From contig NZNU01000060.1 of NCBI GenBank assembly GCA_002695035.1, positions 10,126-58,097 of the forward strand: a DNA stretch of 47,972 nucleotides, written 5' to 3'. The position numbers were made by a program, and so were the translations under genes. The DNA comes from Micavibrio sp. Lineage in GTDB: Bacteria; Pseudomonadota; Alphaproteobacteria; Micavibrionales; Micavibrionaceae. The stretch's first letter is position 1; each line of letters opens with the position of its first letter. Shown here piece after piece: positions 3,708 to 25,174 of this stretch. The notes beneath the pieces were generated by a model, which made no database searches, had not been told where the DNA came from, and worked only from the letters and a program-made list of their open reading frames with translations.

Positions 3708-3880
3708 GTGTTGCACTTCTTTCCTATGAGCCGCGTAACGGCACGAAAGCGGGGGAGATTTAACCATGACCCGGACTTGCCGGAGGGGGATCACCCGCCT
3801 TGCACAAGGCGAAGCCGCGGAAAGGTGGGGATACCGGCAAGTCAGCCGAAGGTGAGCGTCAGCGAAGGTCTTGTTAAATC
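3708..3880 (-). ncRNA. Structured leader element, copy B (upstream of the parB-like gene)
   Basis: Second copy of the element seen at 1055-1221. P1 is 3757-3764 with 3873-3880 (8 perfect pairs) plus gacc/ggtc (3768-3771 with 3867-3870). P2 is 3774-3783 with 3834-3843 (10 perfect pairs). The enclosed core, 3784-3833, is 50 nt as in copy A and differs at 3 positions. Two of those form one base pair that changes from t-a to g-c in the small hairpin (ggc-gaa-gcc here). A 19-nt box at 3708-3726 is identical to copy A, followed by the parB-like start 35 nt later. The preserved pairing with different sequence supports a selected fold. Confidence 0.7.
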
Positions 3881-3945
3881 GGCCCGAAGGGGGCTAATTA
3901 AAACCTATCGAAACCCTTGCTATACATAGATTATTAACTAATTGA

Positions 3946-3977
3946 ATGTAAGATTAATATATATTATTATCTTACAT
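3946..3977. promoter_or_regulatory. 9-bp inverted repeat, probable operator of the AbiEi-like gene
   Basis: atgtaagat (3946-3954) and atcttacat (3969-3977) are perfect inverted copies across a 14-nt AT-only spacer. They end 15 nt before the start codon at 3993. AbiEi-type antitoxins bind such repeats in their own promoters, so autoregulation is the natural reading; it is inferred from position. Confidence 0.55.
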
Positions 3978-3992
3978 ATTGAGGTAATACAA

Positions 3993-4595
3993 ATGCTATC
4001 TACAGCGCAAAAAATTATGAACAGAATTAAGCGGAAAGGCCGTGGATGGGTCTTTACGCCGCAGGATTTTGTCGATTTAGCATCACGCAGTAATGTGGAT
4101 GTGATTTTATACCGTCTTGTTCAGGATGGTGATATTCGCCGTATTCAGCGCGGATTATATGATTTTCCAAAGATTGATGCCCGCCTTGGTATCTTATCAC
4201 CAGATGTAAAAGGGATCGCTCAAGCGGTTGCGCGCCAATCTGGCGATAGTATCGCCCAATCCGGTGCGGCCGCAGCCAACCTTTTGGGCCTAAGTACACA
4301 AGTCCCTGGCAAGATCGTGTATTCTACAACAGGCAAGAGCAAAAGCATTCCAGTGAAAAACCGCTCAATTCAGCTTGTTTCCTCTCATATTCCAGCCGCT
4401 TTGCATCATCTGGACGATCCCGTAACCCTGACACTGCAAGCCCTCGATTATCTGGGCAAAAAGCATGTAACCAAGACAATGATCAAAAAATGTGCAAGCA
4501 TTCTGTCCGATACGGATAAAAACAGAATCAGGCACAATATCCGCTATATTAAAAATGCGTGGCTATCAGATGTCGCGCGGCAACTATGCTATTAA
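3993..4595 (+). CDS. AbiEi/DUF6088-like regulator (putative antitoxin)
   Basis: The ATG at 3993 is preferred over an upstream TTG because GAGG lies about 9 nt before it and the upstream codons would overlap the inverted-repeat operator. The 200-aa protein starts with a winged-helix region (about 1-60: FTPQDFVDLASRSNVDVILY, then GDIRRIQRGLYDFP). It continues into a domain with QSGAAAANLLGLSTQVP and IQLVSSHIPAALHHLDDP, characteristic of AbiEi/DUF6088 proteins. In known systems these repress their operon and neutralise an AbiEii nucleotidyltransferase. No AbiEii gene is present; the next gene is a Fic protein, an unusual partner. Family call good, antitoxin role inferred. Confidence 0.7.
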   Translation: MLSTAQKIMNRIKRKGRGWVFTPQDFVDLASRSNVDVILYRLVQDGDIRRIQRGLYDFPKIDARLGILSPDVKGIAQAVARQSGDSIAQSGAAAANLLGLSTQVPGKIVYSTTGKSKSIPVKNRSIQLVSSHIPAALHHLDDPVTLTLQALDYLGKKHVTKTMIKKCASILSDTDKNRIRHNIRYIKNAWLSDVARQLCY

Positions 4596-4666: not shown

Positions 4667-6157
4667 ATGCCCACTTTTTTTGATGAACTGCCTGAAATAT
4701 TTGTCTCCAATACCGAAATTTCGGCATTGGTAAGCGAAGCTGTGAAATCAGGAAAACTGCGAAAACTCGGCTCAAGGCTTTACACAAAGAATCTGGAAGA
4801 GGCGCCGGAAAGTATCGTAAGACGAAATTGGTATTTTTTGCTCAAGGATTATTACCCCGATGCTCTGATTGCCGACCGCACCGCCATAGAAAATCAGCCT
4901 TCTACGGATGGCTCGGTGTTTATCGTTTCGAAGAAAAAACGAGAAACCGCTCTACCAGGAATTACTTTCAAACCAAGACCAGGAGTAGGGGGCTTGGAAA
5001 CAGACAAGCCTTTTTTAGGCGGGGTTCATCTATCCTCAACCGGCCGGGCTTATCTTGAAAATATGCGCGTATCCCGCGCGCGCGGGGGCGATACCTCCCG
5101 CACCTTGTCCCGAAAAGAAATTGAAGAACGCCTTGACCGCATCTTGCGACAAAGCGGTCATGCCGGAGTGAATGCTATTCGGGATGAAGCCCGCACATTG
5201 ACTAAAAAGCTGGACGCGGAAAAAGAATTTAAGGAACTGGACGAGCTGATCGGATCACTGCTTGGAACGCGCGACGCAGAAATGAAAAGTGATCTTGGTA
5301 AAGCCCGTAAAGGGGGGATGCCCTTTGACCCTGTCAGGCTGGAAAAATTCATCAAATTGTTTGAAGCCTTAAAAGCCTCAGCCCCGATACACCGCCGCGC
5401 GCGCGAAACTACTTCACAGGCCAACACCAATTTGTCCTTTTTTGAGGCTTATTTCTCCAACTTCATTGAGGGCACAGAATTTGAAATTAATGAAGCCGTT
5501 GATATTGTCTTCAACGGTCGCATCCCGAATGATCGGCCGGAAGACGCCCATGATGTTTTAGGAACATTCAGGATTGTTTCCGATACTACGGAAATGAGCA
5601 GATTACCTGGTTCAGCGGAAGAATTATCTCAATTACTAAAAAGCCGTCACGCGGTTTTTATGGAACTCCGTCCTGATAAACATCCCGGTGCATATAAAAT
5701 CAAAAATAATCAGGCTGGTTCAAGCCTCTTTGTTGCCCCTGAACTGGTAGAAGGCACACTAGAAAAAGGGTTCGAGATATACCAATCACTAAACGTGCCT
5801 CTTTACCGGGCTATTTTTATGATGTTCTTGATTAGCGAGATACACCCTTTTACAGATGGTAACGGGCGCGCGGCGCGGATTATGATGAACGCGGAGCTGG
5901 TTGCGGCCGATGAAGAAAAAATAATTATTCCAACAGTCTATAGAAGCAATTATCTCTCTTCACTCAAGGCGCTGACCCATAACGGCCTAACAGATCCGCT
6001 GATACGAACACTCGACTTTGCTCAAAAATATACAAGAAGCCTTGATTGGCATAATTTTGAAGAAGCGCGACACCAGCTCACCGAAACAAATGCTTTCATG
6101 GATCCAAATGAAGCCGATGAAACCGGCGTGAGACTGAAACTTTATCAGGAAAGATAA
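4667..6157 (+). CDS. Fic-family AMP-transferase with N-terminal AbiEi-like winged helix
   Basis: The 496-aa protein has a complete Fic active-site motif HPFTDGNGRAAR at 393-404. SNFIEG at 264-269 matches the class II inhibitory motif (S/T)xxxE(G/N), so the enzyme is probably held off by its own alpha-inhibitory helix. Residues 1-45 resemble the wing region of AbiEi-like regulators (SGKLRKLGSRLYTKN). Fic enzymes usually transfer AMP from ATP to a Ser/Thr/Tyr of a target protein; the target here is unknown. AAGGA precedes the ATG. The gene follows the AbiEi-like regulator by 71 nt, suggesting one operon. A toxin or regulatory role is inferred. Confidence 0.85.
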   Translation: MPTFFDELPEIFVSNTEISALVSEAVKSGKLRKLGSRLYTKNLEEAPESIVRRNWYFLLKDYYPDALIADRTAIENQPSTDGSVFIVSKKKRETALPGITFKPRPGVGGLETDKPFLGGVHLSSTGRAYLENMRVSRARGGDTSRTLSRKEIEERLDRILRQSGHAGVNAIRDEARTLTKKLDAEKEFKELDELIGSLLGTRDAEMKSDLGKARKGGMPFDPVRLEKFIKLFEALKASAPIHRRARETTSQANTNLSFFEAYFSNFIEGTEFEINEAVDIVFNGRIPNDRPEDAHDVLGTFRIVSDTTEMSRLPGSAEELSQLLKSRHAVFMELRPDKHPGAYKIKNNQAGSSLFVAPELVEGTLEKGFEIYQSLNVPLYRAIFMMFLISEIHPFTDGNGRAARIMMNAELVAADEEKIIIPTVYRSNYLSSLKALTHNGLTDPLIRTLDFAQKYTRSLDWHNFEEARHQLTETNAFMDPNEADETGVRLKLYQER

Positions 6158-6322: not shown

Positions 6323-7564
6323 TTAAAGCCAAAGATTGCTCACAGGCACTGCCCATAGATTTTGGCCAAACGGAACAACATCACGACCACGATACAAGAC
6401 TATTCCGCATATGAAATCATGACCTGCTAAACGCTGAAGCTCTTCCAGACCTTTAAAATCAGCTTTTGAGACACTATCGCGCTGTTTAACCTCAACCGCA
6501 GCTAATTGCCCGTTGGATTTTTCCAAGACAAAATCAACTTCCTTATTATCACTGGTTCTGAAATGGTATAAATCCATCTTCTCATTTTGAAATGTCATAA
6601 GCTTGAGAAGTTCGGTCGCAACAAAGTTCTCAAGAACATGCCCAAAAAGCTCCGGTCTGTTTTGTTCAAGATCGCTGAGCTCATACTGCATGAGATGGCA
6701 TAAGAGCAAAGTATCGCTCATATAACCTTTTGGGGATTTGACAAGACGTTTTCCAATATTGCGCGACCAGGGCGCCAGCTCGAAAGTCAGGAACAGCATT
6801 TTAAGCAAGGTTTTGTAATTCCGGGACGTCACAGGATTTAAACCGGCATCCCTTGCGATATCCGCATCATTCACCAAACCGCCGGCGCGATTAGCCAAAA
6901 TCCGAAGCAAATTAGGCAGCGTGCTTAATTTTTCAATTTCAGCGAGAGCGCGGACATCTCGTTGTAAAATAGTGGTCAGATAACCATCAAACCAGGTTGT
7001 ACGCTCAAGTTTTTGTGAACCTGAAATTTCGGGATAGGTCGCTAGGCGCATAACCTCGGCCAGTTTATATTTGGCAGAGTCTGGCTCAAATTCTTTGTTA
7101 AAAAGCTTTTCGATAAAATTACCGTCGCCGGCCAAGGCTTCTGACGCGGCCAAGGGATAGAGCGTTAAAACGCTCATACGACCAACCAAAGGATCTGATA
7201 ATTTCGGCAAGGCCATAATATTGGCTGATCCGGTGAGCAGAAAACGCCCTTTGAGTTTTGGTTGTTCCAGTCTCAATTCATCCACGACAATTTTTAAGGC
7301 TCTGAAAATCTCCGGAACAAGCTGAACTTCATCAATGATTAAGGCACCTTTACGCTCTTTCAAATAGCTCTCAGGAGAGTTGGCGGCGGCAGCCATTTGT
7401 GTTGTACTGTCAAAAGTCACATATTCAGCTGGGTAATCTTTCTTGGCAATGGATTGTACCAATGTGCTCTTGCCAGCCTGTCTCGGACCATTTAAAAACA
7501 CGACAGGGCTGACATTTAATGCCTTTAGAAGTCTATGTCGTGCGTGTCTTTTGATATATGACAT
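6323..7564 (-). CDS. AAA ATPase with DUF4143 domain
   Basis: The 413-aa protein has Walker A in NGPRQAGKSTLV (about 25-36) and Walker B in LIIDEVQLVPEI. LLTGSANIMALPKL is a sensor-1-like strand, and a winged-helix region lies around DADIARDAGLNPVTSRNY. The C-terminal DUF4143 part contains DFVLEKSNGQLAAVEVKQRD, which looks like a PD-(D/E)xK-type fold. Members of this family are widespread and poorly characterised; a nucleic-acid or toxin-antitoxin role is often suspected but unproven. The gene stands alone, convergent with fic, and has its own promoter. Confidence 0.8.
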   Translation of the reverse strand: MSYIKRHARHRLLKALNVSPVVFLNGPRQAGKSTLVQSIAKKDYPAEYVTFDSTTQMAAAANSPESYLKERKGALIIDEVQLVPEIFRALKIVVDELRLEQPKLKGRFLLTGSANIMALPKLSDPLVGRMSVLTLYPLAASEALAGDGNFIEKLFNKEFEPDSAKYKLAEVMRLATYPEISGSQKLERTTWFDGYLTTILQRDVRALAEIEKLSTLPNLLRILANRAGGLVNDADIARDAGLNPVTSRNYKTLLKMLFLTFELAPWSRNIGKRLVKSPKGYMSDTLLLCHLMQYELSDLEQNRPELFGHVLENFVATELLKLMTFQNEKMDLYHFRTSDNKEVDFVLEKSNGQLAAVEVKQRDSVSKADFKGLEELQRLAGHDFICGIVLYRGRDVVPFGQNLWAVPVSNLWL

Positions 7565-7729: not shown

Positions 7730-8239
7730 TCAACGTTTATTTTGCTTCCTCCATTGATAAGGCTCAATAAAATCGCCCTGCCATAACCCACTCTTTGCTA
7801 ATTTCGCCGCACGTTCTTCCGATTTGTAAAACTCATCGCTAAAATAGGTATAATCAATCGCATGGCCGGCTTTAACAATCTCACCGGCAATATCGGTACC
7901 ATCAAGGAAGCATTTCGCTACAATACGGCTCTCTCGCTTGGCGGCTCGCATGATATCGCATGAGACAGCGCGAGATGCTGCCAAATTCTCAAAAAATTGA
8001 CGCGAATGCTTGCCGCAAGGATATGCCTTACCAGTCGCATCACGGCACTTTTGATAGTATTCCGGCGCATCAATACCCCAAAGCCTGACTTTTTGGCCAT
8101 GAATTATAAAGCTGTCGCCGTCCGTAAAATGGTCAATAACACCGGAAATCTTGCTTTGAGCCTGCCCAGAATGCGCGGCAAAAACCAAGGCCAAGATAAC
8201 CAGACCGCAAACCGAGAGCAGGGGAGTGATTTTACGCAT
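7730..8239 (-). CDS. Secreted thermonuclease-like (SNase) protein
   Basis: The 169-aa protein has an N-terminal signal peptide ending near SGQAQ and a staphylococcal-nuclease fold: DGDSFIIHGQKVRLWGIDAPE holds the equivalents of the Ca-binding Asp, Arg35 and Glu43, and ESRIVAKC supplies the second Arg. Four cysteines could form disulphides in the periplasm. Proteins of this type are common on conjugative plasmids (nuc/parB-like genes) and cut DNA or RNA. Its first codons overlap the end of repC by 8 nt, so translation is probably coupled. Why a nuclease is tied to replication is unknown. Confidence 0.85.
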   Translation of the reverse strand: MRKITPLLSVCGLVILALVFAAHSGQAQSKISGVIDHFTDGDSFIIHGQKVRLWGIDAPEYYQKCRDATGKAYPCGKHSRQFFENLAASRAVSCDIMRAAKRESRIVAKCFLDGTDIAGEIVKAGHAIDYTYFSDEFYKSEERAAKLAKSGLWQGDFIEPYQWRKQNKR

Positions 8240-9557
8240 CTTTACTTTCCTCGCTTCGTTTCAAAAGCCCGAAAATCGAGCCTTGTAGGTTCAATTCGCC
8301 TTTCTGGGCGCGAACGGTCATTTCTCGCAAATATCCGCCGGGGCTTCTGATCGGATTGGACAAATCCTGCATTTTTTGATCAATAATCATGATACAGATT
8401 GTAGCACCTGTGCGACCCAGAGTAGAACAAGCCTCCCACCACGCGGATTTATGGATGCCTAACGTCGGAAGAAGGCCGTGTGCAGCATCGGTCAGATCTT
8501 GCCAGGACAATGGCCGCTCATGCAGGGGTATCCGTTCTTTAAAACGATCAGAACAAGCGTTGAGCACCTGCTTCCATGTAATTTTACTAATTATTTCAGC
8601 TATTTTGTTAGATTCAGCTTCTTGCTCTTTAGCGATCTCTCCACTTGCTGTATGTTTGTTATTGGTCTCTAAAGAAGCCGCTACGCCTTCCTGAAGGCTA
8701 ATACCGGGACGGTTACTGTAATCTAATTTATTAGATTGTTTTAGGATTGTACATTGTATGTGGGGGAAATTAGTTTCGTCCGTGGCGGAACTATCACAAG
8801 AAAAAGAAGACTTATCCTCAGCTTGAACAACCCCTTCCAAACTCTGATTAAGAGCCTCATATAATGCTTTATGCTCGGCAAGAAGCTTATCCAGATCGCT
8901 TTGAGAATGATATGTCCGGATAGAGTAAGACACTTTTTCGTATTCATACGTCATATGAAGAAGCATTTCATCCAGCTCATCATAATGACCAGCCTCTGCA
9001 ATCAAGGCTCTTATACGTGCTCTATAGGCAGAAATCTTACGCTTTGTATCATTCCATTTGGCTTTAGCAGCTTGCTTGGCAGCGACTTTTGCTTCCAGTA
9101 AAGGCATTAAAGACGCAAGGGGTGACAAATCAACACCGAAAGCATATTTAATTTCTCGTGTCTCACGATCTCTCATGCCGTAGCGTTTAAAATTACCGGA
9201 ATCTTGCCAAGTCAGTGCGCCGAGGGTATGAAGAGCTTTCTCACGGTTTCTCACCTGTCTTTCAGATATATCGAGATCCTGGGCAGTTGTAGTGACGCTC
9301 TGGTAATTTATAGGCTGGGAGCCTTCTTGCCAGTCTGCTTCATCTGTACGGATCACGTAATATTCTAGAAGCTCGACCAATTCAGCAGAAAACCCTGCAT
9401 CCTTGCCTGCCATCTTAACAAGTTTAAGGGCTTTGAAGCGATCAACATCTTCTTCAAGGCCAATATATTCATCCAAATCCTGTAAGCCGGCCCGAAATTT
9501 GGGTGAGCTTACCCGTCCGCCAAATGCACTTGGCGAATTAATATCTAATATCTGCAT
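8232..9557 (-). CDS. repC: Plasmid replication initiator RepC
   Basis: The 441-aa protein matches RepC of repABC-type alphaproteobacterial plasmids. It has an N-terminal winged-helix region with SERQVRNREKALHTLGALTW, then DSGNFKRYGMRDRETREIKY followed by AFGVDLSPL, a basic coiled middle, and a C-terminal domain with LSWQDLTDAAHGLLPTLGI, SAWWEA and SPGGYLREMT. RepC binds its origin, usually inside the gene, and is rate-limiting for replication. No repA or repB is adjacent, so this is a repC-only replicon or the partition genes have been lost or moved. The ribosome-binding site is weak (TGAAAC), in keeping with translational control. A ctRNA gene lies antisense in its leader. Confidence 0.82.
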   Translation of the reverse strand: MQILDINSPSAFGGRVSSPKFRAGLQDLDEYIGLEEDVDRFKALKLVKMAGKDAGFSAELVELLEYYVIRTDEADWQEGSQPINYQSVTTTAQDLDISERQVRNREKALHTLGALTWQDSGNFKRYGMRDRETREIKYAFGVDLSPLASLMPLLEAKVAAKQAAKAKWNDTKRKISAYRARIRALIAEAGHYDELDEMLLHMTYEYEKVSYSIRTYHSQSDLDKLLAEHKALYEALNQSLEGVVQAEDKSSFSCDSSATDETNFPHIQCTILKQSNKLDYSNRPGISLQEGVAASLETNNKHTASGEIAKEQEAESNKIAEIISKITWKQVLNACSDRFKERIPLHERPLSWQDLTDAAHGLLPTLGIHKSAWWEACSTLGRTGATICIMIIDQKMQDLSNPIRSPGGYLREMTVRAQKGELNLQGSIFGLLKRSEESKDA

Positions 9558-11592: not shown

Positions 11593-12915
11593 TTAAAGGC
11601 TATTTAACCGCGATTTTAATCCACGCATTACAGAGTCATGTATCTCTTCGGGGAAATTTGCGGGCAGATTATTCTCCAGAGACTGTATGGCTTTTGGCGC
11701 GATCTGGGATATTTCTTCCAGAGCGTCATGTGCGATATAATCCGGCAATCCCGCCTTTTGAACGGTTTGTATAAAATGCCGTCCTTGAATGTCTTCCATT
11801 TTATAATGATTGTTATTCCCGGCGGACATGGCCATTTTCATTTCTTTTTTCTGCAATTTACGAGCGTCAAAAAACGGTTGCGCTGTTAGAACATCATAAA
11901 AGGGTGTGAGGATAAAACGCCCTCCAGCTCCCAAAAAGATACTGAAATTTTTACCATGTCCGTCTGTTGCTCCAATGAGCCAGAAAATAATTTGTGCCTT
12001 CAAGAAGGCTTTTTGATCTTCTGCGGGCTGATCACTTCCTTTTAAAAGATTGAGTATCTCCACCATACTAGGCTGTTTCTCACTGGCAGGGCGGTGATCA
12101 CTCTGGTATTTACGGCTTGGCGGAATGGATAAAGCCTGACAACAATCTTCTTGCGGAATACGCTGTAAAATTCTGTCTTGTGTCCATACGCGGTCAAACC
12201 GCTCAATCACGAGAGATTTTGTGTTGCCGAAAGTCTTAATCTCGGCTTTGTTCACAGGAAGTCCGAAGGCTTCCATCACGGCCAAGCCATAAAACTCATT
12301 TTCCACACTATTAGAAAGGTCAATGCCGTTTGGTAAATGCCCAATCTGGTTTTTAAAAATATGCGTTGTTGGTGTGGTGCCGGACGGGCGCAGCCATTTT
12401 CCCTTATGAAATAACAGGGCTGTTTTTTCCTGCACACCGGCGACCGAAATCCGAAAATCATGCTCTCTGTCTAGCCCTAACGGAACCCGAGCAAGATTAT
12501 TTAAGAGATCTTCAATCTCTTCCTCATTGATCTCTTCTCCTTGGATATCATGCAAATTAGAAAAATCTACGTTTGCATCTTCCGGAAAAAATTGAAGAGC
12601 GCCAACACAATCCCGGCCTATTTGCGCCAGAAGACTATAAGCATCTGTGCCTGCTGCGCCCACTTTCTCTGCAACGCGCGATCTTAAGCTCTGTGAATCC
12701 GGCAGGAGGTTTTCAAATACAGCCAAGACAGGCGCACCTTTAAAAGCCTCTTCGCGTAAGGGCAGGGAAAGAGATACCGGGTAAGCCTTATCGTGAGAAA
12801 GCCATTCATCGGCATAGATGAAGTCCACGGCACCGCTAGGCTGCTTGGATAAATAGCCCACGATCTCGCCGTTTTGAAACACGCTTAAGCGTGGGTGTGT
12901 TTTAGTTCTGCCCAT
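11593..12915 (-). CDS. hipA: HipA-type serine/threonine kinase toxin
   Basis: The 440-aa protein has the HipA N-terminal subdomain (FENLLPDSQSLRSRVAEKVG), the P-loop-like region SVAGVQEKTALLF, the segment VIERFDR, the catalytic motif ATDGHGKNFSIFL and the metal-binding strand FYDVLTAQP. HipA kinases phosphorylate glutamyl-tRNA synthetase or similar targets and slow growth. The start overlaps the end of hipB by 14 nt, with AAGGA about 12 nt before the ATG. It would act as a plasmid-stabilising toxin with HipB as antitoxin. All key residues appear present. Confidence 0.88.
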   Translation of the reverse strand: MGRTKTHPRLSVFQNGEIVGYLSKQPSGAVDFIYADEWLSHDKAYPVSLSLPLREEAFKGAPVLAVFENLLPDSQSLRSRVAEKVGAAGTDAYSLLAQIGRDCVGALQFFPEDANVDFSNLHDIQGEEINEEEIEDLLNNLARVPLGLDREHDFRISVAGVQEKTALLFHKGKWLRPSGTTPTTHIFKNQIGHLPNGIDLSNSVENEFYGLAVMEAFGLPVNKAEIKTFGNTKSLVIERFDRVWTQDRILQRIPQEDCCQALSIPPSRKYQSDHRPASEKQPSMVEILNLLKGSDQPAEDQKAFLKAQIIFWLIGATDGHGKNFSIFLGAGGRFILTPFYDVLTAQPFFDARKLQKKEMKMAMSAGNNNHYKMEDIQGRHFIQTVQKAGLPDYIAHDALEEISQIAPKAIQSLENNLPANFPEEIHDSVMRGLKSRLNSL

Positions 12916-19975: not shown

Positions 19976-20147
19976 ATGCCTAACGCCTGCTTTTGACAGG
20001 AAATGGACAAGTGCCCTATTTAAAATTACACTATAATTACCATAAGATACATTATCACATTTAGCTTAATAGGTGCGGCACATGGAAAATCTGCCCCCAT
20101 CGGTTAAGATTTCCCTCGGTCAAAACTATTATAAAGGAGAAATGATA

Positions 20148-21194
20148 ATGAAATACTATGTTGGTTTGGATGTCTCACAGGAAGAAACACATATTTGCGT
20201 GATTGATGAAGATGATCGCAAAATCTGGCAAGGCAAATGTCTGTCCACCCCGGAGGCCATTGGAAAACTGATACAGGAACATGCACCTGATGCTGCGAAG
20301 ATTGGTTTAGAGACTGGAAATTTATCAACCTACTTATGGCATGGACTGAACGATATGAGCCTGCCGGTGATCTGCATTGATGCCTACCATGCTCATGGTG
20401 TTCTGAAATTACGGATGAATAAGACAGACAAAAATGACGCCCACGGCCTTGCACAAATCATGCGCTCAGGCTGGTTCAAGGCTGTAAAGGTCAAAAGTTT
20501 TGCCAGTCATGAAGTTCGAGCTTTATATCGCGCCAGAAGCAGTTTGGTCAGCATGAGATCGGATGTCGTAAATCAGATACGGGGTTGTTTAAGAGTTTTT
20601 GGCATTCTTATAAAAGGAATAGCTGGCGTTGCTTTTGAAAAACGTGTTCAAGAGATTATTGACGAAGGAGGTACACTTGCCGCTCCTCTTCAGGCGCAGC
20701 TAACAGTATTGCAAACCATTAAAAAAGAAATTGAAGAATTGGATGAGCTAGTGCTTGATCATTCATGGGCGTGTCCGTCGTGTCGCGCTTTAATGACAAT
20801 ACCAGGTGTTGGACCGATGACAGCGGCACATTTTGTGCTGGCCGTTGATGATGTCGAAAGATTCAATAAATCCAAGAGTGTTGCGGCCTACTTTGGATTA
20901 ACGCCGAAACGCTTTCAATCTGGTGATATGGATTTTAACGGGCGCATCTCAAAACGGGGAAACAGAATTGTAAGGCATCACCTCTATGAAGCGGCCAATA
21001 TCCTGATGACCCGCGTCAAAAAGCCATCAGCTTTACAAGAATGGGGCCTACGGATCGCTAAACGTAGCGGCATGAAAAAAGCGCGTGTGGCTGTAGCGAG
21101 AAAGCTTTCAGTGATTATGCACCAAATGTTGCTAACAGGAGAATGCTTTAATCCCTACCCTGCACACAATTATGGAGGTTCGGTACATGGATAA
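20148..21194 (+). CDS. IS110-family DEDD transposase, copy 1
   Basis: The 348-aa transposase starts at the ATG after AAAGGAGA (20148). The N-terminal DEDD domain shows D in YVGLDVSQEETH, E in IGLETGNLS and the pair in NKTDKNDAHG. The C-terminal Transposase_20 domain has MTIPGVGPMTAAHF, YFGLTPKRFQSGDM and the conserved Ser region GRISKRGNRIVRHHLYEAA. IS110 recombinases work with a bridge RNA from the element. The protein looks complete. Confidence 0.9.
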   Translation: MKYYVGLDVSQEETHICVIDEDDRKIWQGKCLSTPEAIGKLIQEHAPDAAKIGLETGNLSTYLWHGLNDMSLPVICIDAYHAHGVLKLRMNKTDKNDAHGLAQIMRSGWFKAVKVKSFASHEVRALYRARSSLVSMRSDVVNQIRGCLRVFGILIKGIAGVAFEKRVQEIIDEGGTLAAPLQAQLTVLQTIKKEIEELDELVLDHSWACPSCRALMTIPGVGPMTAAHFVLAVDDVERFNKSKSVAAYFGLTPKRFQSGDMDFNGRISKRGNRIVRHHLYEAANILMTRVKKPSALQEWGLRIAKRSGMKKARVAVARKLSVIMHQMLLTGECFNPYPAHNYGGSVHG

Positions 21195-21476
21195 ATTTTA
21201 AGATTATGAAGTTTGCGATCCTTTAAATCGTCCACAAAGGATTGCCTATGTCCCCTGCCGGGACGAAGGCGATCGGTGAAACCCGATATTGGTAATGCAG
21301 CGAACAGTCTTTTTTGAAATGGACAAGCGAAAAAGCTGATTGCGGATCACTCTTTAGGGAAACCGAATGCTTGGTACGCTAACATGTGGCAGAAAACCTG
21401 ACCACGAAGAGATCTATGACACCGGCAATGACATGGCAATACTAAAAGGAAATATTAGGATTGCATTTTTATATTG
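21195..21476 (+). ncRNA. 3' non-coding region of IS110 copy 1, bridge-RNA candidate
   Basis: About 280 nt between the transposase stop and the right end, conserved in blocks with the same region of copy 2. Blocks include CCGGGACGAAGGC, a hairpin atcgg-tgaaa-ccgat type structure (21271-21286), GCGGATCAC (21342-21350), TGTGGCAG, GACCACG and ACCGGC. The pairing in the hairpin is kept with changed bases in copy 2 (ccgg/ccgg). Non-coding conservation with paired changes suggests a structured RNA. Confidence 0.5.
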
Positions 21477-21594
21477 CATAATTCTATTAGAGAGAGATTT
21501 AGCTTAATAGGTGCGAAGTATGACAATTACCGATCCCTTTCGGATGGTATATTGCCAATTTTAACAACTATTAGATTTTAAATGGAGATAAGAA

Positions 21595-22659
21595 ATGGAT
21601 CAATATGTCGGCCTCGATGTTTCGCAAGATGAAACGCATGTTTGCGTTGTTGACCGTGATGGTAACAAACTTTGGGAAGGAAATTGCCCGTCAACGCCCG
21701 AAGGTATTGGTGAAACAATCAAAAAACACGCGCCGGAAGCTGTAAAGATCGGTCTGGAAAGTGGCCATCTTTCGACATGGCATTGGCACGGCCTGAACGA
21801 CATGGGGCTTCCAGCCATTTGTATTGACGCGTACCATGCGCACGGCGTTTTACGCTTACAAATGAATAAGACGGACAAGAACGATGCCCATGGCATTGCA
21901 CAGATTATGCGGTGCAACTGGTATAAAGAAGTCACCATCAAGAGCTTCGAGAACCATGAGTCTCGCGCCCTGTTCCGCACACGCAGCAATCTTGTCAGCA
22001 TGCGCAGCAATCTTGTCAGCATGCGCACCGATGTCGTCAACCAAATCCGCGGCATGCTGAAAACGTTTGGCATTCTCATCAAAGGTATTGCAGGCGTTAG
22101 TTTTGAAAGCCGCATTCAGGAGATCATTGATGAAGGCACGGCTATTGCCCCTCCCCTTAAAATCCAGCTTGAGATGCTGCGCATGATTAAGCAAAAAATA
22201 GAAGAGCTGGATGAGCTCGTTCTCGATCATGCTTATGCTTGCCAGAATTGCCGCATTCTAATGAGCATTCCTGGCGTTGGCCCAATGACGGCCGCCAACT
22301 TCGTGCTGGCTGTTTACGATGCCGACAGGTTTAAACAATCAAAGAGTGTCGGTGCTTACTTTGGCTTGACACCAAGGCGTAGGCAATCGGGTGAAATGGA
22401 TTACAACGGGCGCATTTCAAAACGCGGTGATCGTGTCATACGCCACCAGCTCTATGAAGCGGCCAATTCCATTCTCACTAGAGTGAAAAAGCCCTCTGCC
22501 CTGCAAGCATGGGGATTGAGGATTGCGAAACGCTCCGGCATGAAAAAGGCACGCATCGCAGTTGCCCGAAAGCTCGCGGTCATCATGCACCAGATGCTGC
22601 AAACCGGTGAGCTGTTCTGCTTTAATCCTGCAACTGGTGAAAGGGCTTTGTATGCGTAA
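21595..22659 (+). CDS. IS110-family DEDD transposase, copy 2
   Basis: The 354-aa transposase is closely related to copy 1 with the same DEDD residues (YVGLDVSQDETH, IGLESGHLS, NKTDKNDAHG) and C-terminal motifs (MSIPGVGPMTAANF, GRISKRGDRVIRHQ). GGAGA precedes the ATG. It contains a perfect 21-bp tandem duplication at 21982-22023, which repeats SNLVSMR within the helix following the catalytic domain. Copy 1 has a single unit. The effect on activity is unknown. Confidence 0.9.
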   Translation: MDQYVGLDVSQDETHVCVVDRDGNKLWEGNCPSTPEGIGETIKKHAPEAVKIGLESGHLSTWHWHGLNDMGLPAICIDAYHAHGVLRLQMNKTDKNDAHGIAQIMRCNWYKEVTIKSFENHESRALFRTRSNLVSMRSNLVSMRTDVVNQIRGMLKTFGILIKGIAGVSFESRIQEIIDEGTAIAPPLKIQLEMLRMIKQKIEELDELVLDHAYACQNCRILMSIPGVGPMTAANFVLAVYDADRFKQSKSVGAYFGLTPRRRQSGEMDYNGRISKRGDRVIRHQLYEAANSILTRVKKPSALQAWGLRIAKRSGMKKARIAVARKLAVIMHQMLQTGELFCFNPATGERALYA

Positions 22660-22940
22660 GATTTAAGAAAAAACAAGTTTGTAGTCTTGTAAAACAAAGC
22701 ATAAGACTACGTTTTGTCCCAGCCGAGACGAAAGCTTCCGGTTAAACCCGGTATATTTGATGCAGAAAAAGATTGTTTTATTTGGACAAACTACAATCAA
22801 ACTGCGGATCACATTTTGAGGGAACCGAGGCCTCCAAAGCAATAGTGTGGCAGTCCAATGACCACGTAGAGAATGGTGATACCGGCTAGACAAAAACGTA
22901 TTTAAACGCTAGTTTGCAAACTACTCCTGCACCAATTACA
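22660..22940 (+). ncRNA. 3' non-coding region of IS110 copy 2, bridge-RNA candidate
   Basis: Counterpart of 21195-21476. Shared blocks are GCCGAGACGAAAGC with the following ccgg-ttaaac-ccgg hairpin (22730-22752), ATGCAG, TTTGGACAA, GCGGATCAC (22804-22812), GGGAACCGAGG, TGTGGCAG, GACCACGTAGAG and ATACCGGC. No open frame of note. Bridge RNAs of some IS110-family members are encoded in such a 3' region. Confidence 0.5.
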
Positions 22941-23033
22941 CATAATTCTATTAGAGAATTGTCCGTCGTCAAATGATTTGAGACAACTGGTTAGTCTATG
23001 ATCAGGAGAGTTTTGCTCATCTGATTGTTAAAT

Positions 23034-23975
23034 TTAAGCAGCAATTTTGATATGCTGCAAGCGTCTTTGTTGTAATGTTTTGTTTTTCAGTTTTCTCCTT
23101 TTTTCTAGAATTGCATTTCCCCTGCCAAAGTAAACATCGGCAGGCGTAAGGTTATCAAGACTTTCGTGATAGCGTTGATGATTGTAATACGCGATAAACT
23201 CACCAATATCGTATTCAAGATGGCTCGGCAGATAATGGTTGTTCAGCAGGACGCGGTTTTTAAGGGTTTGATGCCAACGCTCGATCTTGCCTTGTGTTTG
23301 CGGGTGATACGGCTTGCCGCGCACATGGTTCATGCCCTTGGCTTTCAAGAAGTCGGCCAGATCGCTTGCCACGTATGACGTGGCGTTATCACAGCCCGAA
23401 GCATCAAGATCCAGTTCAAGCGTATCGGTCACATCACTGGCCTTCATGGTGGTACAAAGCTTCCATGCGATGATATAGCGCGAGAAATCATCAAGCACGG
23501 TGGAGAGATAATACCAGCCCCAGCCAATGATCTTGAAGTAGGTGAAATCCGTTTGCCATTGCTGGTTTACGCGCTCCGGCTTATCCTTGAACTCATTAGC
23601 AGCCTTGATAACCACGAAGGCCGGGCTGGTGATCAGATCCTGCTCTTTGAGCAAGCGATAGACGCTCGCCTCGGACACAAAATAGCCTTTCGTATCCGTA
23701 AAACGCACAGCCAGCTCTCGCGGGGATAGCTCAGGGCATTCGAGTGCCAGCTCGATAATCTGATCCCTTATCTTATCAGGGATGCGGTTCCACACATGAG
23801 ACGGAGTTGAAGGCTTATCAGTCAAAGCTTCAAAGCCGCCTTCAAGGTATTTATCATACCAGCGGTAAAAGGTTGGGCGCGATATGCCGATTTTATCAAG
23901 CGTCTCACGCGCACAAAGATGGGATTGTTCCACGGTGCGGATAATCTCAAGCTTTTCTGATGCAGAGTATCTCAT
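23034..23975 (-). CDS. IS3-family transposase OrfB (DDE integrase)
   Basis: The 313-aa protein has an N-terminal helix-turn-helix (CARETLDKIGISRPTFYRWY) and an rve integrase core with catalytic Asp in QWQTDFTYF, Asp in SGCDNATSY and Glu in GKIERWHQTLK. The C-terminal YYNHQRYHESLDNLTPADVY is typical of the family. It follows orfA after 5 nt, so translation may be coupled or use frameshifting. Complete. Confidence 0.9.
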   Translation of the reverse strand: MRYSASEKLEIIRTVEQSHLCARETLDKIGISRPTFYRWYDKYLEGGFEALTDKPSTPSHVWNRIPDKIRDQIIELALECPELSPRELAVRFTDTKGYFVSEASVYRLLKEQDLITSPAFVVIKAANEFKDKPERVNQQWQTDFTYFKIIGWGWYYLSTVLDDFSRYIIAWKLCTTMKASDVTDTLELDLDASGCDNATSYVASDLADFLKAKGMNHVRGKPYHPQTQGKIERWHQTLKNRVLLNNHYLPSHLEYDIGEFIAYYNHQRYHESLDNLTPADVYFGRGNAILEKRRKLKNKTLQQRRLQHIKIAA

Positions 23976-23980
23976 ATACT

Positions 23981-24343
23981 TTACTCCCCATCCCCGATCA
24001 TGCTTTTTTTGAGAAGGCGAAGCTCTAGCGTTTGCTCAGCAACAACCTCCTTCAAGACCCGCGCTTCTTGGCGCAAAGTCTTGACTTCATCTGTTGTCGC
24101 CGAACGCGCTGTATCACCAGCTAAACGCTGCTTGCCGGCCTCAAGAAATTCTTTTGACCAACTGTAATACAGACTCTGGGCAATGCTCTCAACGCGGCAT
24201 AACTCCGCTATGCTCGTCTCACCGCGCAAGCCGGCTATCACAATCCTGATTTTTTCTTCTGCTGAGTAGAGTTTACGCGTAGAACGGCGAATATTCTTCA
24301 CCAGTTTTTCCGCTTCTGATTTATTGTGTTGTTTTGGTTTCAT
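23981..24343 (-). CDS. IS3-family OrfA (helix-turn-helix protein)
   Basis: The 120-aa protein has the transposase_8-type helix-turn-helix (YSAEEKIRIVIAGLRGETSI, then AELCRVESIAQSLYYSWSKE) followed by a leucine-zipper-like coil (VKTLRQEARVLKEVVAEQTL). The start at 24343 is chosen because AAGGA lies 6 nt before it; ATGs further upstream have no ribosome-binding site. Provides DNA binding for OrfB. Confidence 0.85.
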   Translation of the reverse strand: MKPKQHNKSEAEKLVKNIRRSTRKLYSAEEKIRIVIAGLRGETSIAELCRVESIAQSLYYSWSKEFLEAGKQRLAGDTARSATTDEVKTLRQEARVLKEVVAEQTLELRLLKKSMIGDGE

Positions 24344-24430
24344 CTTCATTCCTTCGTCATTACGATGTAACCAAAACTCTCCTTTACGCAAGACCTCTAT
24401 TCTGTCTCATAGGTTCTGACGGGGGACAGG

Positions 24431-25174
24431 CTTGGATACGCCTTCACCGATGAGTTTAGTGTGTTTGGGGGCGTTCATAAAGGGTTTGCGCCGCCCTCTC
24501 CTAGTAGTACCAATGATGATAACGAAGAGAGTATAAATTATGAGTTAGGAGGACGTTATAACGGCAATATTCTCAATCTAGAATTGGTTGGTTTTTTTAA
24601 CGACTATTCAAATCTTCTTGGGGAATGTACTTTGTCTTCTGGTTGCAGCGGTGGAGCAACAGGTGAGCAATTTAATGCGGGTGAAGTTGATGCTTATGGG
24701 GTAGAATTTTCTTTGGGTTATGATGCTGCGCCTGTATTCAATGTTCGCAATGATATTAGCTTGCCTATTAATTTTAATTATACTTACACACAAGCAGAAT
24801 TTCAGAATAGCTTTGTAAGTGCATTTGACGAATGGGGCAATGTTACGGCTGGGGATGAATTACCCTATATTCCTGAGCATCAGTTTTTCGTGTCTGCAGG
24901 TGTTGTAGCTCCAAAATGGGAGGTGCATGTAGCCGGAAAATATGTTGATGAGATGCGCACACAAGCTGGTAGCGGCTCTATCCCAAGTGGTCAGGGTACA
25001 GACAAACATTTCGTCGTAGATGTAGCAGGAGAATATGAAATATTTGAAAATACACGATTGTTCGGAACAGTAGACAATCTCTTTGATAAAGAATATGTTG
25101 CCGCTCGAAGACCCGCCGGTGCAAGACCAGGCAAACCGCTGACTGCATTGGCTGGGTTAAAGTTTGAATTTTAA
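24431..25174 (+). pseudogene. C-terminal fragment of a TonB-dependent receptor
   Basis: The frame is open directly from the IS3 boundary (GYAFTDEFSVFGGVHKGFAP) and contains typical barrel strands: YNGNILNLELVGFFNDYSNL, VDAYGVEFSLGYD, YIPEHQFFVSAGV and TVDNLFDKEYVAARR, ending in LAGLKFEF with the terminal Phe for outer-membrane insertion. About 250 residues remain; the plug and most of the barrel are gone. The best match in style is the ferric-citrate (FecA-like) group. The first internal start would be GTG at 24461, but no functional product is expected. Confidence 0.75.

What the first reader, a model, noticed from the sequence alone, without database searches (positions are those of the whole stretch)
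20059..22957. Head-to-tail IS110 pair with conserved 3' non-coding regions
Both elements have the same left 19-mer and right 17-mer but diverged coding sequences. Both keep about 280 nt after the transposase with conserved blocks and at least one hairpin whose paired bases differ between copies. This is what a bridge RNA would look like. The right end of copy 1 meets the left end of copy 2, like the junction in a circular intermediate, and may create a promoter.
Basis: partly seen in the sequence, partly recalled or inferred. Interest (0 to 1): 0.6.

Follow-up and report, generated by a model that had tools for sequence, protein, structure and literature searches.

The report
RNA-guided insertion-sequence pair at dif
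Two related bacterial "jumping genes" lie head to tail on a plasmid, and each carries an RNA whose guide bases match dif, the site where cells separate joined chromosome or plasmid copies; insertion appears to rebuild that site rather than destroy it.

Summary
Two IS110/IS1111 elements lie head to tail at 20059-21493 and 21497-22957, with identical 19-nt left ends, identical 17-nt right ends and transposases 72% identical. They do not abut: GAG separates them. They follow the IS1111 plan (7-nt and 3-nt end extensions, RNA downstream of the transposase). The RNA fold covaries across ten relatives. In seven of nine families the left guide plus core matches the element's own flank exactly over 7 nt (2 of 72 in cross-family controls). 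This supports the bridge RNA reading.

New here: the target is dif, the XerC/XerD dimer-resolution site. Copy 1 follows CATAA-GATACA-TTATCAC. The chromosomal version (CATAATATAYATTATCAC) occurs about once per genome across the order and, in one chromosome checked, sits where GC skew changes sign. Twelve of 13 insertions lie in dif or dif-like sites, always after TTATCAC. The element's first bases (ATTT/ACTT) refill the outer XerD arm. The window is a repC conjugative plasmid.

Unexplained: the guide reads only about 7 nt, present roughly 1,000 times per genome, yet insertions are confined to dif; copy 1's guides specify a TC core its left end lacks. Transposition, RNA and dif function are predicted, not shown.

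The parts
20035..20062 (+). dif-like XerC/XerD site: XerC arm 20035-20045 (AATTACCATAA), 6-bp centre GATACA 20046-20051, XerD arm 20052-20062 (TTATCAC from the plasmid + ATTT supplied by the IS left end)
   Evidence: matches the once-per-genome dif motif of the order; same plan as published alphaproteobacterial dif sites (PMC2731167)
20059..21493 (+). IS copy 1, 1435 bp, IS1111-type
   Evidence: ends defined by comparison with about a dozen relatives; 7-nt left and 3-nt right extensions around the subterminal repeats
20059..20077 (+). left end of copy 1: 7-nt extension ATTTAGC + subterminal repeat TTAATAG (20066-20072)
20148..21194 (+). transposase of copy 1, 348 aa, DEDD/Transposase_20
21215..21245 (+). 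first hairpin of the copy 1 non-coding RNA, with compensatory changes among relatives
   Evidence: helix 1
21262..21426 (+). predicted bridge/seek RNA core of copy 1
   Evidence: covariance model match, 132.8 bits; copy 1 is one of the model's own sequences
21287..21296 (+). predicted right target guide of copy 1 (UAUUGGUAAU)
   Evidence: position homologous to the guide that is complementary to the right flank in L013 and L029
21346..21352 (+). predicted left target guide of copy 1: AUCAC + core UC
   Evidence: matches ATCAC of dif
21408..21414 (+). predicted left donor guide of copy 1: AGAGA + core UC
   Evidence: matches the right-end terminus AGAGA; same core as the target guide but not as the actual left end (AT)
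21477..21493 (+). right end of copy 1: subterminal repeat CTATTAG (21484-21490) + AGA
21494..21496 (+). GAG spacer between the two copies, origin unknown
   Evidence: the tandem in L006 lacks it
21497..22957 (+). IS copy 2, 1461 bp, IS1111-type
21595..22659 (+). transposase of copy 2, 354 aa, with a 21-bp (7-aa) in-frame tandem duplication relative to copy 1
   Evidence: (family D4)
22681..22710 (+). first hairpin of the copy 2 non-coding RNA
22727..22886 (+). predicted bridge/seek RNA core of copy 2
   Evidence: covariance model match, 186.4 bits; copy 2 is one of the model's own sequences
22752..22761 (+). predicted right target guide of copy 2 (UAUAUUUGAU)
   Evidence: position homologous to the guide that is complementary to the right flank in L013 and L029
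22808..22814 (+). predicted left target guide of copy 2: AUCAC + core AU
   Evidence: exact 7-nt match to dif TTATCAC|AT
22868..22874 (+). predicted left donor guide of copy 2: AGAGA + core AU
   Evidence: matches right end AGAGA + left end AT
22941..22957 (+). right end of copy 2
8232..9557 (-). RepC: the replicon is a repC plasmid
   Evidence: PF03428/PF11800, NF040974
38938..47548 (+). type IV secretion (conjugation) genes on the same replicon
   Evidence: CagE_TrbE_VirB, TrbL, TrbI, T2SSE matches

Best explanation
Both copies are IS1111-type, RNA-guided insertion sequences. The RNA made from the region after each transposase gene is a bridge (seek) RNA with a target loop (right target guide, then left target guide AUCAC + core) and a donor loop (right donor guide, then left donor guide AGAGA + core). 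The transposase with this RNA joins the ends of a circular IS (AGA|ATTTAGC) into a dif site exactly after TTATCAC, in one orientation. The IS left end begins ATTT (or ACTT), so the XerD-binding arm is re-formed and the dif site is probably still usable. In the window the target was the dif-like site of a repC conjugative plasmid. A regenerated TTATCAC|AYTT next to a resident IS can be hit again, which explains recurrent head-to-tail arrays. Shown by sequence: ends, target, guide-flank matches, covariation, recurrent arrays. Inferred: RNA production, RNA-protein binding, transposition, and that dif stays functional.
For: IS1111 plan: 7-nt/3-nt extensions and 3' non-coding region. Left flanks of 12 of 13 insertions end in TTATCAC at a dif or dif-like site. 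CATAANNTNNATTATCNC occurs in 115 of 142 genomes of the order, mostly once, with control counts near zero. In G088 the site lies at the GC-skew change, about +0.08 to +0.17 on the left and about 0 to -0.16 on the right. XerC- and XerD-like genes are present in the window's genome. Alternative-centre sites lie on repC contigs in eight genomes. RNA covariation: 11 pairs changed on both sides against 4.9 in shuffles, 0 of 500 reach it; slid controls 2-4. Guide test: in seven of nine families the left guide + core matches the element's own flank 7/7; cross-family 7/7 in 2 of 72; permutation p = 5e-5. Right target guide complementary to the right flank over 8 nt or more in L013 and 7 nt in L029. Core dinucleotide equal in target guide, donor guide and left end in W2, L002, L013, L032, L043, L047, L048. 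Arrays also in L006 (right end directly against a second left end, now cut by an IS30) and, as a remnant, in L009.
Against: The right target guide does not match the right flanks in the dif family beyond the first one or two bases. The left guide reads only ATCAC + 2; such 7-mers occur about 0.47 per kb, yet insertions are confined to dif, so a specificity factor is missing from the model. Two of the nine families (L037, L041) fail the left-guide test. Copy 1's guides specify core TC while its left end begins AT and its junction reads GAG. One of 13 flanks (L011) is not convincingly dif. The subterminal repeats are short (7 bp with one mismatch). No expression or activity data.
Confidence: 0.85

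Rival explanations
1. The elements are IS1111-type, but dif is chosen mainly by protein: transposase recognises XerCD-bound or bent dif DNA, and the RNA contributes little.
For: Positions -18 to -6 of dif lie outside the guide match but are conserved in the flanks, 8 to 13 of 13 positions in 12 of 13 insertions; guide 7-mers are about 1,000 per genome.
Against: The left guide tracks the flank in six re-targeted families whose targets are not dif; published work shows RNA-directed, reprogrammable targeting in IS1111 and IS110 elements (PMC11187229, PMC11208160).
Confidence: 0.12
2. Insertion is less specific than it looks, and selection removes copies elsewhere: only insertions that rebuild dif are tolerated.
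For: The left-end extension (ATTT/ACTT) fits the outer XerD-arm consensus; each carrier genome has one locus; the guide itself is short.
Against: Not one of 13 insertions lies in an intergenic AUCAC-AY site far from any dif resemblance, although many such sites should be neutral.
Confidence: 0.25
3. The head-to-tail pair arose by homologous recombination or replication slippage rather than by two insertions.
For: The GAG spacer is not explained by two clean insertions; the left 19 nt of copy 1 are like copy 2 while the following bases are like L002.
Against: The copies are 72% identical proteins with different RNA guides, so not a duplication of one copy; a clean direct junction exists in L006.
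Confidence: 0.25
4. The conserved left flank is another repeated motif (promoter or protein-binding site), not dif.
For: It is AT-rich and partly palindromic, like many regulatory sites; the skew test was done on a single chromosome.
Against: About one copy per chromosome across an order, 11-6-11 layout and core like Magnetospirillum and Bartonella dif, skew change at the site.
Confidence: 0.04

Closest known systems
IS1111-group insertion sequences with seekRNA (ISEc11, ISPa11, ISKpn4; PMC11187229)
   Same: DEDD transposase with PF02371; 7-nt left and 3-nt right extensions; RNA region downstream of the transposase; right (top-strand) guide before left guide; clean insertion in one orientation; end-to-end junctions
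   Different: target is dif rather than REP or attC; subterminal repeats only 7 bp with a mismatch; left end rebuilds the target's outer arm; naturally found in arrays
IS621 / IS110-group bridge RNA (PMC11208160, PMC11208158)
   Same: two-loop guide logic with a shared core dinucleotide in target and donor loops; remote sequence similarity of the transposase to solved IS621 and ISCro4 proteins
   Different: IS110 group has the RNA upstream of the gene and the opposite guide order
IS1202-family 'dif site hunters' (ISAjo2, ISAba71; PMC10132070)
   Same: insert in fixed orientation beside chromosomal and plasmid dif sites without destroying them
   Different: DDE transposase, terminal inverted repeats, 5-bp duplications, 5 bp outside the XerC arm; here no duplication, insertion inside the XerD arm, RNA guide
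Elements that integrate by host XerCD at dif (IMEX, pdif modules)
   Same: exploit dif on chromosomes and plasmids
   Different: those carry a dif-like site and use XerCD for integration; here the element has its own transposase

Membership tests
IS1111 group | DEDD_Tnp_IS110 + Transposase_20 domains | tested here: met
   both copies; NF033542
IS1111 group | GL-P----S(t)G motif in the C-terminal domain | tested here: met
   GLTPKRFQSG and GLTPRRRQSG
IS1111 group | 7-nt left and 3-nt right extensions outside subterminal inverted repeats | tested here: met
   ATTTAGC|TTAATAG ... CTATTAG|AGA
IS1111 group | subterminal inverted repeats of usually 11-13 bp (PMC11187229) or 7-17 bp (PMC11208160) | tested here: inconclusive
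   7 bp with one mismatch; other families have 8 of 9 matching
IS1111 group | long non-coding region downstream of the transposase | tested here: met
   299 and 298 nt downstream; 5' side about 90-100 nt
IS1111 group | RNA derived from that region binds the transposase and is required for movement | not testable with these tools
   needs experiment
Bridge RNA with two loops | conserved, covarying secondary structure | tested here: met
   0 of 500 shuffles reach the observed covariation
Bridge RNA with two loops | target loop complementary to both flanks | tested here: inconclusive
   left guide: met in seven of nine families including dif; right guide: clear in L013 and L029, partial in others, poor in the dif family
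Bridge RNA with two loops | donor loop complementary to the joined IS ends, with the same core as the target loop | tested here: met
   AGAGA + core in W2, L002, L013, L032, L043, L047, L048; copy 1 is an exception at its left end, and L029 differs
dif site | 11-6-11 layout, about one per chromosome, near the replication terminus | tested here: met
   (terminus test in one chromosome only)
dif site | recombined by XerC and XerD | not testable with these tools
   XerC- and XerD-like genes present, below the equivalog cut-offs
IS1202 dif hunters | DDE transposase with terminal inverted repeats and 5-bp target duplication | tested here: not met
   DEDD transposase, no duplication

The most novel reading that the evidence does not exclude
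A lineage of RNA-guided insertion sequences is dedicated to XerCD dimer-resolution sites on chromosomes and plasmids, recognises dif by more than its guide RNA (for example through Xer-bound DNA or a contact beyond the known guide), and has evolved left-end bases that rebuild the XerD arm so that dif function and its own target both survive insertion.
Probability: 0.4. Interest if true: 0.75.

Novelty: new variant of a known kind. Interest (0 to 1): 0.62.

Why it matters
RNA-guided insertion sequences were recognised in 2024, and the natural targets reported in the papers read here were repeats such as REP sequences and attC sites. An RNA-guided element aimed at dif would be a second, unrelated solution to the niche of the IS1202 dif hunters, at a site every circular chromosome must keep. 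If the left end restores the XerD arm, the element is a clear case of target repair by a transposon. The gap between a 7-nt guide match and near-exclusive use of dif is a concrete question about how these enzymes find targets. The nine families with readable guides and flanks also give a ready test set for guide rules in the IS1111 branch.

Tried and rejected
Rfam: no match in the window at gathering thresholds. Viral contigs: no relatives. A promoter across the copy 1/copy 2 junction: not found by consensus scan, although seven of eight other families have TTGAC about 22 nt before their right end, so the junction-promoter idea stays open for the group. GC skew in the window's own contig and in G026 was uninformative: the first is a plasmid, the second contig is short. 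I first took the part of the left guide after AUCAC (AUUUU) as a guide to the right flank; comparison with L013 and L029 showed that the right flank is read by the 5' strand of the loop instead. I looked by eye for a longer guide to dif positions -18 to -6 in the RNA and found none conserved (W2-type RNAs contain GUAUAUU, complementary to AATATAC of dif, but other dif-family RNAs do not). Whole-genome download was not available.

Full report
OBSERVATION. The pair is real. Repeat search gives identical 19-mers at 20059 and 21497 and identical 17-mers at 21477 and 22941, with about 70% DNA identity in the coding parts. Both ORFs are IS110-family transposases, 72% identical, followed by 299 and 298 nt of non-coding sequence with shared blocks. 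The genome (a draft of 2.14 Mb in 82 contigs) holds no other copy. The two copies are separated by GAG (21494-21496), so this is not an exact circle junction.

ENDS. Relatives from the same order and a few other genomes have both ends, which fixes the boundaries by comparison: left end ATTTAGC|TTAATAG, right end CTATTAG|AGA. These are the 7-nt and 3-nt extensions outside subterminal inverted repeats that define IS1111-type elements (PMC11187229). The repeats are short, 7 bp with one mismatch. The non-coding region downstream of the gene and the GL-P----SG motif also fit IS1111.

TARGET. Left flanks of 13 insertions (scored) read CATAAnnTnnATTATCAC in most cases. I recognised this as a possible dif site. 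Test 1: the pattern CATAANNTNNATTATCNC occurs in 115 of 142 genomes of the order, usually once, against almost no matches for the reversed-pattern control. Test 2: in IS-free genomes the site reads AATTTCCATAA-TATAYA-TTATCAC[AT][TC], the 11-6-11 layout of published alphaproteobacterial dif sites, for example Magnetospirillum CGTCGCCATAATATACATTATGCGACAA (PMC2731167). Test 3: in a 1.38-Mb contig of G088 the GC skew is positive in every sampled stretch left of the site and falls to zero and then negative to the right. Test 4: XerC- and XerD-like genes are present in the window's genome, just under the curated cut-offs. I treat the motif as dif, with terminus position shown in one chromosome only.

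REPLICON. The window is part of a 75-kb contig with repC and parB and a type IV secretion gene set, so it is a conjugative plasmid. Its dif-like site has the centre GATACA, unlike the chromosomal TATAYA. Sites with such other centres (GATACA, GTTATA, GATATA, ATTATA, GATAAA) lie on the same contig as repC in eight genomes including this one (G000, G021, G042, G060, G064, G078, G081, G110). The IS therefore uses both chromosomal and plasmid dif. The original chromosomal dif of this genome was not found in the draft.

INSERTION POINT. The IS always follows TTATCAC, seven bases into the XerD arm, in one orientation. The outer four bases of the arm are then supplied by the IS: ATTT, or ACTT in L002. 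Both fit the composite consensus of the native outer arm. Left-end extensions of related families that target other sequences are different (ACATGGG, AGATGGT, AGATACT, TATGTAT). I infer, without functional data, that the left end is adapted to rebuild dif.

RNA STRUCTURE. An alignment of ten distinct RNAs (A3) gives a consensus fold. For a seven-helix structure written from these folds, 91.8% of cells pair, 11 pairs have changes on both sides (4.9 expected from shuffles, 0 of 500 reach it), and sliding the partners drops pairing to about 40%. Most covariation lies in the first hairpin and in the hairpin that caps the target loop. The target-loop and donor-loop stems mostly do not vary and so are neither supported nor contradicted. 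The structure was derived from the same sequences, which favours it over slid versions; the shuffle result is less affected but not free of relatedness effects.

RNA RELATIVES. A covariance model finds the RNA at nine genomes of the order, eight of them full-length loci next to the IS apart from this window, and, with low scores, beside transposases 47-55% identical in Sinorhizobium, Ciceribacter, Ensifer and one more genome.

GUIDE TEST. From the dif family I predicted that five bases before a core dinucleotide in the 3' strand of the target loop equal the last five bases of the left flank. I then located ends in eight more distant elements by the 7/3 rule and looked for flank(5) + left-end(2) in each RNA region. 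Six of eight have an exact 7-nt match; counting the dif family, seven of nine. Six of those matches lie 62-73 nt before the end of the donor guide; L029 has a longer region and its match lies at 125. Matching each flank to the other families' RNAs gives 7/7 in 2 of 72 cases; permutation p = 5e-5. L037 and L041 fail; the left end of L041 is uncertain. The search was over the whole region for the best match, and the dif family suggested the rule, so the clean evidence is the six later families. The right target guide is on the 5' strand: L013 GGGGGCTGT is the complement of its right flank ACAGCCCCC, L029 TGGCCGG of CCGGCCA; L043 and L032 show partial agreement by eye. This is the order reported for IS1111 (top-strand complement first, PMC11187229). 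The donor guide is AGAGA + core, equal to the right-end terminus plus the left-end start.

CORE. The core after AUCAC in the target guide and after AGAGA in the donor guide is the same in each dif-family element: AU in copy 2, AC in L002 (whose left end starts AC), UC in copy 1. In L013, L043 (AC) and L032, L047, L048 (AG) the left end and right flank agree as well. L029 does not follow this. Copy 1 is odd: both guides say UC, but its left end starts AT. Its first 19 bases equal copy 2's, while the following bases resemble L002. A replaced left end would explain this; I cannot show it.

ARRAYS. L006 has the right end directly against a second left end that is cut by an IS30 transposase gene region. 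L009 has a second 17-nt right end after ATT, a remnant of a second copy. With the window this makes three of about 13 loci with arrays. Since insertion leaves TTATCAC next to ATTT or ACTT, the site can be used again.

WHAT IS NOT EXPLAINED. The 7-mers that the guides could read (ATCACAT, ATCACAC, ATCACTC) occur at 0.47 per kb on both strands in a sampled chromosome, about 1,000 per genome, yet 12 of 13 insertions are at dif or a dif-like site. The right target guide does not add enough: in the dif family it fits the native consensus ATCAA in some sites but not the actual right flanks. So something else selects dif: DNA-bound Xer proteins, an unrecognised contact, or loss of insertions elsewhere. 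The independence of insertions is inferred from differing flanks; G000 and G059 carry related plasmids and may not be independent.

LITERATURE. In the held library, papers on IS110/IS1111 RNAs do not report dif as a target; the only dif-targeting IS family found is IS1202 (PMC10132070), which is unrelated and works differently. Subscription-only papers and preprints were not searchable.

VERDICT. A new member of the IS1111 branch whose target, and probable repair of it, are new in the literature I could search; hence 'new variant of a known kind'.

Noticed in passing
21974-22015: Copy 2's transposase has a 21-bp in-frame tandem duplication (NLVSMRS repeated) that copy 1 lacks; relatives align with a 7-residue gap there. 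It might impair the protein.
   Followed up: partly
22960-24428: An IS3-type element (rve integrase and HTH_Tnp_1 genes, imperfect 26-bp inverted ends) begins two bases after copy 2, and the TonB receptor fragment at 24461-25174 is only the C-terminal part of the domain.
   Followed up: partly
L002 (G026) 3779-4363: The relative of copy 1 carries an open reading frame with VOC/glyoxalase-like sequence (by eye) between its RNA and its right end, as if cargo; L026 (G011) also has about 700 extra bases there.
   Followed up: no
L058 (G010), just after dif: An IS-free chromosomal dif is followed by ATACCGGCAATGACA, identical to the end of the copy 1-type RNA region, without transposase or ends: a relic or a non-autonomous form.
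   Followed up: partly
right ends of the dif family, e.g. 21477-21483: CATAAT, the inner XerC-arm sequence, is conserved in the right ends of dif-targeting elements although it lies outside the subterminal repeat and is absent from other families; the joined ends read CATAA-5 nt-TTAGAGAATTT, close to a dif site with a 5-bp centre.
   Followed up: no
G064, loci L097-L099: Three dif-like sites with centre GATAAA share an identical 40-nt right flank, suggesting a repeated or mobile unit next to dif.
   Followed up: no
4667-6157, 6323-7564, 11593-12915: The plasmid carries a Fic-domain gene, an AAA_14/DUF4143 gene and a HipA-like gene.
   Followed up: no
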